A stretch of 62,145 nt of DNA from Chloroflexota bacterium. Its GTDB lineage: Bacteria > Chloroflexota > Dehalococcoidia > Lucifugimonadales > UBA3495. Position 1 is the first letter of the stretch. Every line of letters begins with the position of its first letter. The notes under the pieces are model-generated. The model did no database searches, was not told the origin of the DNA, and was given only the letters and a program-made list of their open reading frames with translations. This document shows, one piece after another, positions 1,901 through 31,304 of this stretch. A program made the position numbers and the translations under genes. Where the stretch lies: the NCBI GenBank assembly GCA_028875055.1, contig JAPPGG010000036.1, positions 1-62,145 of the forward strand. Direction: 5' to 3'.

Positions 1901-2093
1901 CCCTGGCCGTAACAGTTCAGAGTTGAAGGAATTGCCTGCCCATAAACCCGTCATACCTCCGACTTCGTAGGGGCGCATGGCCATGCGCCCCTACCCAACC
2001 CACGACTTGCACAGGTTCCAGGCTCCCGCCTGCGCGGGAACGACCGGTTTTTCAGCCGTGTAACACACCAATTCTGAACTGTTACCCCTGGCC
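1901..2093. repeat. 8-bp target-site duplication flanking the MITE-like element (copy 1)
   Basis: CCCTGGCC occurs at 1901-1908 and again at 2086-2093, immediately outside the two ends of the 1909-2085 element. A perfect 8-bp direct repeat at this position is the expected footprint of transposition. Confidence 0.8.
1909..2085. mobile_element. Non-autonomous MITE-like element, copy 1 (IS66-type ends)
   Basis: This 177-bp element has terminal inverted repeats. The left end reads GTAACAGTTCAGAGTTG and the inverse of the right end reads GTAACAGTTCAGAATTG, 16 of 17 identical. It is bounded by perfect 8-bp direct repeats and encodes no protein. The centre holds a perfect 28-bp palindrome at 1967-1994, and a smaller inverted repeat (TCCCGC...GCGGGA) lies near 2024-2040. 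Ends starting with GTAA and 8-bp duplications are known hallmarks of the IS66 family, so an IS66 transposase elsewhere in the genome probably mobilised it. A related copy is at 17382-17550. Confidence 0.8.
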
Positions 2094-2166
2094 GGGCTTC
2101 ATAGCCTTAGTTACGTTGATGGTATATCATAGGGTCAACGTCGTTCCCTGAGATCTAGGAGGGTCT

Positions 2167-3501
2167 ATGGCTACTATCCTGGAAGAATATATTGAGAAAC
2201 ACCCCGGTTCAGCGCAAAGGTACGCCGAGGCAACCCGGATTTTCCCTGGCGGCGTCACCCACGACAATCGTTACGCCCAGCCCTTTCCTCTTTACATTAC
2301 TCACGGCACCGGCCCTTACAAATGGGACGTGGATGGCAACGAGTATATTGATTACGTATCGGGCCACGGCGCGCTGATATTGGGTCATTCTCATCCTGCG
2401 ATAGCTGCCTCAGTGTCGGAGCAGATCAACCGGGGCACCCACCTTGGGGCCTGCACCGATGAAGAGCTGCGGTGGGCCAAGGCCATCATGGCCCTGATGC
2501 CAGCGGTGGAAAAAGTACGCTTCCATAGCTCTGGAACCGAGGCTACGCTGATGGCGATGCGGCTGGCCCGCGCCTACACCGGCAAGAGCAAGGTAATCAA
2601 GCTCCAGGACCACTTCCATGGCTGGCACGACTATGCCATGGCCGGGTCGGACCGTCCCGCGCCCGGCATACCGCAGGAGAGTTGGGGCAGCATGGTTATC
2701 GTGCCCTCGGGGGACCTGCAGGCGGTGGAGGATGCCCTGAACCGGGACGACGACATCGCGGGCCTGATCCTGGAACCCACCGGCGCGCACTACGGCCAGC
2801 TACCCTTCGATGTGCCCAATTACCTGAGGGGCCTGCGCGAGCTGACCAGTCAGCACGGCGTGGTGCTGATCTTCGACGAGGTGGTCACGGGCTTTCGCGC
2901 TTCGCCGGGCGGCGCCCAGGTCCTTTACGACGTGGCTCCCGACCTGACCACCATGGCCAAGATTGTTGCCGGCGCCCTGCCGGGCGGGGCGGTGGGCGGC
3001 AAGGCCGACATTGTGGACATGATTGCCCATCGGGGCGACCCGGAGTGGGACAACCAGCGGCGCGTCTATCACCCCGGAACCTTTAACGGCAACCCCCTGT
3101 CGGCGGTGGCCGGCGCCGTATGCCTGGAGACTATCGCCAGTCAGCCCGTAAACCAGCAGGCCGACGCCATGGCCCAAAGGCTGATGCTTGGACTGAATGA
3201 CGTGCTGGGCAAGATGGAAGTGGCCGGTTTCGCCCATGGAGTGGCTTCGATGATTCACCTGGTGCTGGCCGACTGCGACTTTGACAAGGGAGTTCTCGGC
3301 ATGACTCACCGCGAGATTAAGGAGGCCATTGGCTCACCGGCTGTTACCGCTCTGAAGCGCAGCATGCAGAACCACGGCGTTGACATTATGGGACGGGACT
3401 CCTTCCTGGTTTCTTCCACCCACACGGAAACGGAGATTGACAAGACCCTGGCTGCCGTTGAGAGGTCCCTGGCCGAGGTTCGAGCCGAGGGGTTGCTGTA
3501 A
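2167..3501 (+). CDS. Class III aminotransferase, glutamate-1-semialdehyde aminomutase-like
   Basis: A 444-residue PLP enzyme of fold type I. Visible elements are the phosphate-binding SSGTEA at 121-126, the pyridine-contacting FDEV (Asp237-Glu238) and the Schiff-base lysine Lys265 in TTMAKIVAGALPGG. Overall layout matches GSAM/HemL-like proteins, which transfer amino groups within or between small carbonyl compounds. The ATG at 2167 has a good ribosome site (GGAGG, about 5 bases before). It sits with an MFS carrier and a dienelactone hydrolase rather than with haem genes, so a catabolic transaminase or mutase role is more likely than tetrapyrrole synthesis. The true hemL should be elsewhere. 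Confidence 0.85.
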   Translation: MATILEEYIEKHPGSAQRYAEATRIFPGGVTHDNRYAQPFPLYITHGTGPYKWDVDGNEYIDYVSGHGALILGHSHPAIAASVSEQINRGTHLGACTDEELRWAKAIMALMPAVEKVRFHSSGTEATLMAMRLARAYTGKSKVIKLQDHFHGWHDYAMAGSDRPAPGIPQESWGSMVIVPSGDLQAVEDALNRDDDIAGLILEPTGAHYGQLPFDVPNYLRGLRELTSQHGVVLIFDEVVTGFRASPGGAQVLYDVAPDLTTMAKIVAGALPGGAVGGKADIVDMIAHRGDPEWDNQRRVYHPGTFNGNPLSAVAGAVCLETIASQPVNQQADAMAQRLMLGLNDVLGKMEVAGFAHGVASMIHLVLADCDFDKGVLGMTHREIKEAIGSPAVTALKRSMQNHGVDIMGRDSFLVSSTHTETEIDKTLAAVERSLAEVRAEGLL

Positions 3502-17373: not shown

Positions 17374-17558
17374 CAGTCAGCGTAACAGTTCAGAAATTTA
17401 GGAGAATAACCTGCCTCTACGGCCGACATCGTAGGGGCGCATGGCCATGCGCCCCTACCCAACCCAGGACTGGCCCAGGTTCGATGTCCCCGCCTGCGCG
17501 CTGACGAAGGGTTTTCACCTAAACAGCGCCCTCCAACTCTGAACAGTTACCAGTCAGC
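17374..17558. repeat. 8-bp target-site duplication flanking the MITE-like element (copy 2)
   Basis: CAGTCAGC is found at 17374-17381 and again at 17551-17558, exactly abutting the ends of the 17382-17550 element. The sequence differs from the duplication around copy 1, which is expected for independent insertions. Confidence 0.8.
17382..17550. mobile_element. Non-autonomous MITE-like element, copy 2 (IS66-type ends)
   Basis: A 169-bp element related to the one at 1909-2085. The left end is GTAACAGTTCAGAAATTTAGG, and the inverse of the right end is GTAACTGTTCAGAGTTGGAGG. The 28-bp central palindrome (17431-17458) is identical in both copies, and the flanking internal sequence is clearly similar but diverged. 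Perfect 8-bp direct repeats border it. No transposase is encoded. Confidence 0.8.
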
Positions 17559-30907: not shown

Positions 30908-31304
30908 GGCCGGTTTCTCCTTGAGCTAAGTTCGACTGCACAGAACTGGGGCAGCTTCAACAAAACTGCCGCAATTGCGCCCTATATTAGCATATTTCAG
31001 GTATGGAACATTCCGGGAAGCACAGGCAGTAACAGCTCAGTGTTGACGAGTCACGGTGGACTGGAAGGCGCTTTTCTGCCCTGCGCCGGATTCCAGGAAG
31101 GCCGACGGTGGTCCATACAGGTGAAGCGTAACTGGGATCCCTCGATACCGGCTTTCGCTGGTATGACGGAGATGACTGGCACGAAAATCCCAACAGTTCT
31201 GGACTGTTGCCGCAGGGAGGTGGGCAGCCGGCCCAACCGCGGCATCGCGGCTCATGCTAATGGAGGGGAGGGGCAGGGGTAGGGAGGAAGCCGGCAGGCC
31301 CGGC
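30908..31304. other. Intergenic region with a decayed repeat
   Basis: About 400 bases without a credible gene. It contains a possible degenerate third copy of the MITE (31029-31210) and, near the ALDH start, a TAATAT box on the minus strand that might be part of its promoter. Confidence 0.45.
31029..31210. mobile_element. Possible decayed MITE copy 3
   Basis: The left end reads GTAACAGCTCAGTGTTG, and the inverse of the right end reads GCAACAGTCCAG, which is 9 of 12 alike. The flanks CACAGGCA and CGCAGGGA match at 6 of 8 positions, as expected for an old duplication. The size of 182 bp is close to the intact copies, but the central 28-bp palindrome is absent, so this identification is tentative. 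Confidence 0.35.

What the first reader, a model, noticed from the sequence alone, without database searches (positions are those of the whole stretch)
1901..2093. MITE-like element, copy 1, with perfect 8-bp target duplication
A 177-bp non-coding element has near-perfect inverted ends beginning GTAACAGTTCAGA and is flanked by CCCTGGCC on both sides. GTAA ends with 8-bp duplications are a known IS66-family signature, and the clean duplication suggests relatively recent movement.
Basis: partly seen in the sequence, partly recalled or inferred. Interest (0 to 1): 0.65.

Follow-up and report, generated by a model that had tools for sequence, protein, structure and literature searches.

The report
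IS66-type MITE family in SAR202-like Chloroflexota

Summary
Confirmed: a 177-bp element (window 1909-2085) with 13-bp perfect (16/17) inverted ends GTAACAGTTCAGA, flanked by an exact 8-bp duplication CCCTGGCC. The own genome holds 71 sites with this end (control 2). They resolve into 44 paired elements in three interior subfamilies (A 15, B 22, C 7) plus 14 single-ended copies. Flank matching is sharp at exactly 8 bp (18 of 44 pairs match at 7-8 bases; shuffled 0.5). IS66 assignment supported: six genomes of the same family carry 1.43-1.48-kb elements with the same ends, several with 8-bp duplications, filled by one IS66-type transposase gene (ISBst12-like layout). One of them (G026) also carries a subfamily-A MITE with a perfect duplication. 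Not supported: 'relatively recent movement'. The same insertion lies at the orthologous site in sister species G003 (about 90% identity), with decayed end and duplication, and is absent in G002. The own genome has no detectable IS66 transposase, and no end checked leads into an IS66 body, so the family is probably orphaned here. Ordinary in kind; mildly interesting as a well-resolved IS66-derived MITE family with similar short elements in other Dehalococcoidia and in Armatimonadota bins.

The parts
1901..1908 (.). left target duplication CCCTGGCC
   Evidence: read directly; family-wide signal at exactly 8 bp
1909..2085 (+). MITE, subfamily A, copy 1 (177 bp)
   Evidence: 95.5% identical to the subfamily-A consensus
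1909..1925 (+). left terminal inverted repeat GTAACAGTTCAGAGTTG (IRR-like)
2069..2085 (-). right terminal inverted repeat GTAACAGTTCAGAATTG (read on the - strand; IRL-like)
1967..1994 (.). 28-bp palindrome GTAGGGGCGCATGGCCATGCGCCCCTAC, also found alone elsewhere in the genome
2014..2050 (.). second REP-like hairpin (CTCCCGCCTGCGCGGGAACG region), also found alone elsewhere
2086..2093 (.). right target duplication CCCTGGCC
17382..17550 (+). MITE copy 2 (169 bp, variant of subfamily A), duplication CAGTCAGC at 17374-17381 and 17551-17558
31029..31210 (.). decayed MITE copy 3, interior like subfamily B by eye; flanks match 6 of 8
2100..2131 (+). conserved block CATAGCCTTA...GGTATATCATA just downstream of the insertion, probable promoter of the gene at 2167-3501
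   Evidence: seen in G001, G002, G003, G004 and G007

Best explanation
The element is a non-autonomous MITE mobilised in trans by an IS66-family transposase of the ISBst12 (single-ORF) type. It keeps only the terminal 17-25 bp of the IS around an unrelated interior with REP-like hairpins. The transposase recognised these ends and inserted the element at an 8-bp staggered target, leaving CCCTGGCC on both sides. Shown: ends, duplications, copy number, matching complete IS66 elements in relatives. Inferred: mobilisation in trans and the strand-transfer chemistry. In this genus the transposase seems to have been lost, so copies are probably immobile and vertically inherited; the window copy inserted before this species split from its sister G003.
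For: 71 end sites against a control of 2; 44 paired elements in three subfamilies, duplication signal only at 8 bp. Complete 1.43-1.48-kb elements with the same ends in six genomes of the same family, with 8/8 or 7/8 duplications in G034, G014 and G020; the G026 transposase matches PF03050 at 1.7e-39 and PF13005. G026 holds both the IS and a subfamily-A MITE with perfect duplication ATTTAGAA. Subfamily A keeps the asymmetry of the two IS ends. Published ISBst12-group element ISDge4 has ends GTGACTACTCAGCA / GTAACTGCTCAGCA and an 8-bp duplication (PMC12898284). Orthologous insertion in G003, absent in G002. 35-aa transposase relic in G003.
Against: No transposase in the own genome, so donor and recipient are matched across genera only. 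The interiors do not visibly derive from IS66, so a simple internal deletion is not shown. The G026 IS copy itself has no matching 8-bp duplication (2/8). End assignment to IRL/IRR is modest, and for subfamilies B and C partly tied.
Confidence: 0.93

Rival explanations
1. The family is still active: an IS66 copy exists in the organism but is missing from the 75-contig assembly, and the window copy moved recently.
For: Perfect ends and duplication in the window copy; assemblies of this kind lose repeated IS copies; several contigs end inside MITEs.
Against: No PF03050 or protein match in G000; the broken MITEs at contig ends lead into another repeat, not into IS66; none of the 5 genomes of the genus has an IS66 transposase beyond a 35-aa relic and one weak 31% match; the window insertion and copy 2 are shared with G003.
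Confidence: 0.07
2. The dispersed palindromic repeats are REP/REPIN elements moved by the genome's Y1 (RAYT-like) transposase, and the shared ends are incidental.
For: Interiors contain REP-like palindromes that also occur alone; the genome has one Y1_Tnp ORF of 185 aa.
Against: Defined inverted ends with exact 8-bp duplications are a DDE-transposase signature, and Y1/HUH enzymes make none (own knowledge); interiors differ between subfamilies while the ends are shared.
Confidence: 0.01

Closest known systems
IS66 family, ISBst12 group (e.g. ISDge4 of Deinococcus geothermalis, PMC12898284)
   Same: GTAAC-type imperfect ends (GTAACTGCTCAGCA in ISDge4), 8-bp duplication; the relatives' complete elements have one transposase ORF of about 470-480 aa
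   Different: the window element has no ORF of the transposase, is 177 bp, and shares only the terminal 17-25 bp
Bacterial MITEs such as MITEPsy1 (Pseudomonas syringae, PMC3189936)
   Same: short, non-coding, multi-copy, inverted ends shared with an IS, target duplication
   Different: MITEPsy1 is 100 bp with 4-nt duplications and is linked to an IS5-type IS; here 8 bp and IS66; MITEPsy1 was seen to move, this one was not tested
REP / REPIN elements
   Same: REP-like hairpins lie inside all three subfamilies and also occur alone
   Different: REPs lack terminal inverted repeats of this kind and 8-bp duplications

Membership tests
MITE | short, non-coding, terminal inverted repeats | tested here: met
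   177 bp, 13/13 and 16/17 inverted ends, no transposase ORF
MITE | multiple dispersed copies with target duplications | tested here: met
   44 paired plus 14 single-ended copies; 18 of 44 with 7-8 of 8 matching flanks, shuffled mean 0.5
MITE | moved in trans by the transposase of a parental IS | not testable with these tools
   only inferred from shared ends; IS and MITE coexist in G026
IS66 family (as source of the ends) | ends beginning GTAA and 8-bp duplication | tested here: met
   complete IS66-type elements in relatives share both
IS66 family (as source of the ends) | associated IS66 (PF03050) transposase with the same ends | tested here: met
   met in relatives; not found in the own genome
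ISBst12 group | single transposase ORF without the accessory ORFs of classical IS66 | tested here: met
   one ORF frame of 472-482 aa fills the 1.43-1.48-kb elements of G026, G020 and G014; no transposase phylogeny was made
REP/REPIN moved by RAYT | no target duplication, mobile unit is the palindrome itself | tested here: not met
   exact 8-bp duplications at the outer ends

The most novel reading that the evidence does not exclude
IS66/ISBst12-type ends have been recruited repeatedly around unrelated, hairpin-rich interiors, giving a broad radiation of MITEs in Dehalococcoidia and apparently Armatimonadota; the terminal 17-20 bp alone would then suffice for IS66-type transposition, with REP-like palindromes carried as passengers.
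Probability: 0.4. Interest if true: 0.4.

Novelty: new member of a known kind. Interest (0 to 1): 0.25.

Why it matters
It links a high-copy repeat family of uncultured SAR202-like Chloroflexota to a named IS family, shows which terminal bases are kept, and gives at least 58 insertions that can be annotated in a poorly described clade. It also cautions that a perfect duplication does not by itself show recent movement. The open-access library searched gave no MITE family assigned to IS66, though most subscription papers and ISfinder are not held there.

Tried and rejected
IS66 Pfam search of the own genome: none. Plasmid collection: no match. Longer end-to-end intervals in G000: for the two whose ORFs I listed (L090, L100) the ORFs do not look like transposases by eye; I did not list the others, several of which combine ends of neighbouring MITEs. 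Literature: a four-term search returned nothing; the only paper with 'IS66 family' plus MITEs is about IS6/IS26; the prokaryotic MITE review does not mention IS66. RAYT origin rejected. The 35-aa transposase relic in G003 has no recognisable end beside it, so it is not an intermediate between IS and MITE.

Full report
Observation. The window holds, exactly as described, a 177-bp element at 1909-2085 with inverted ends GTAACAGTTCAGA (13/13; 16/17 when extended) flanked by CCCTGGCC at 1901-1908 and 2086-2093. Two further copies lie in the window: 17382-17550, with perfect duplication CAGTCAGC, and a decayed one at 31029-31210. The end motif occurs 71 times in the genome at up to one mismatch, against 2 for the reversed control.

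Family structure. Pairing those ends gives 44 elements of 146-214 bp in three groups that share ends but not interiors: A (15, mostly 177 bp; the window copy), B (22, about 178 bp) and C (7, about 212 bp). Fourteen of 17 unpaired ends also match one of these families, several of them cut at contig ends, so there are at least 58 copies; ends with two or more mismatches were not counted, so this is a lower bound. Flanks match only at a duplication length of 8: 70% of bases, against 25-30% at 6, 7, 9 or 10, and no signal when the register is shifted. Eighteen of 44 pairs match at 7 or more of 8 bases, against 0.5 in shuffles, maximum 4. Mean pairwise identity is 88% (A, 11 copies aligned), 76% (B) and 92% (C).

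Interior. All three interiors contain REP-like hairpins. The 28-bp palindrome of A (1967-1994) occurs at about 18 places outside the elements; a hairpin of B has 26 matches, about half of them outside my list of elements, though some of these could be decayed copies. The window copy folds far better than shuffles (z -5.4), as expected from its inverted ends and hairpins. In the part of the comparison with the IS66 elements that I printed, matches were confined to the ends apart from stray 11-12-bp hits.

Source of the ends. The own genome has no detectable IS66 transposase. Among 250 genomes of the order, nine have a strong homologue of the G026 protein. In six of them, all of the same family, both ends of the element could be read. 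G026 has a 1457-bp element with a 473-aa ORF matching PF03050 (1.7e-39) and PF13005. G034, G020, G014, G024 and G011 have 1.43-1.48-kb elements with GTAACWGTTCAG-like ends at both termini. The duplications are 8/8 in G014 and two G034 copies, 7/8 in G020 and a third G034 copy, 6/8 in G024, and absent (2/8) in G026 and G011. The layout, one ORF over nearly the whole element, is that of the ISBst12 group. The published ISBst12-group element ISDge4, seen to transpose, has ends GTGACTACTCAGCA / GTAACTGCTCAGCA and an 8-bp duplication (PMC12898284). The two IS ends differ after about base 17, and subfamily A keeps this asymmetry: its left end is nearer IRR in 7 of 8 IS copies, its right end nearer IRL in 7 of 8 with one tie. 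G026 also carries an A-type MITE with perfect duplication ATTTAGAA, so IS and MITE coexist there.

Age. The sister species G003 has the window copy at the orthologous site, in one alignment of 1487 bp at 90% identity that spans both flanking genes, with its right end and duplication decayed; G002 lacks it there. Copy 2 is shared with G003 too, although G003's contigs break inside it. Both insertions therefore predate that split, unless the same site was hit twice. The clean duplication of the window copy reflects retention, not recency. A 35-aa relic of the transposase C-terminus in G003 (60% identity, E 1e-5, one stop) suggests that the IS was once in the genus.

Context. The element lies between an MFS-like transporter gene (492-1796) and an aminotransferase-like gene (2167-3501), both named by reading and not by profile. 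Seven bases after the duplication begins a block, CATAGCCTTA...GGTATATCATA (2100-2131), that is conserved in G001, G002, G003, G004 and G007 and looks like the promoter of the second gene. An effect on expression is possible but untested.

Wider spread. Among the fetched loci many pairs of ends 111-326 bp apart have 7-8 of 8 duplications, including Armatimonadota elements of 133-135 and 301 bp; misbinning is not excluded. Contig lengths identify G001, G002 and G003 with bins SB0662_bin_28, SAR202 bin22 and RHO2_bin_36, so the window most likely comes from a SAR202-like Dehalococcoidia species.

Verdict. Mobilisation in trans and the strand-transfer chemistry are inferred from the family, not shown.

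Noticed in passing
G000 contig ends L061, L062, L063, L066, L069, L071; L278 1501-1655: Several contigs end inside B-type MITEs at a repeat beginning GGTGTTGCACTT, always next to a REP-like hairpin; in L278 it runs into an ORF start GKHYRQLTIEERCEMARLQ that resembles an IS30-type transposase N-terminus (by eye), as if an IS targets these hairpins.
   Followed up: partly
L288 around 1390-1511 (G002, orthologous to window 17382): At exactly the site of MITE copy 2, G002 has a different short stretch (about 105 bp) also bounded by GTAACTGTTC and GAACAGTTGC, with no matching 8-bp duplication. Unexplained: independent insertion at the same base, or a replaced interior.
   Followed up: no
L138, L149, L151-L153 (G034, complete genome): Several G034 copies of the IS66 transposase are broken by stops or a frame change near residue 242, repeatedly at the same place; decay, sequencing error or frameshifting were not told apart.
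   Followed up: no
L166 1438-1995 (G000 C70): A 185-aa Y1_Tnp (RAYT-like) ORF in the own genome, a candidate mover of the stand-alone REP-like palindromes.
   Followed up: partly
L168, L202, L207, L216 (Armatimonadota bins): Short elements of 133-135 and 301 bp with the same ends and 7-8 of 8 duplications in bins of another phylum; misbinning not excluded.
   Followed up: partly
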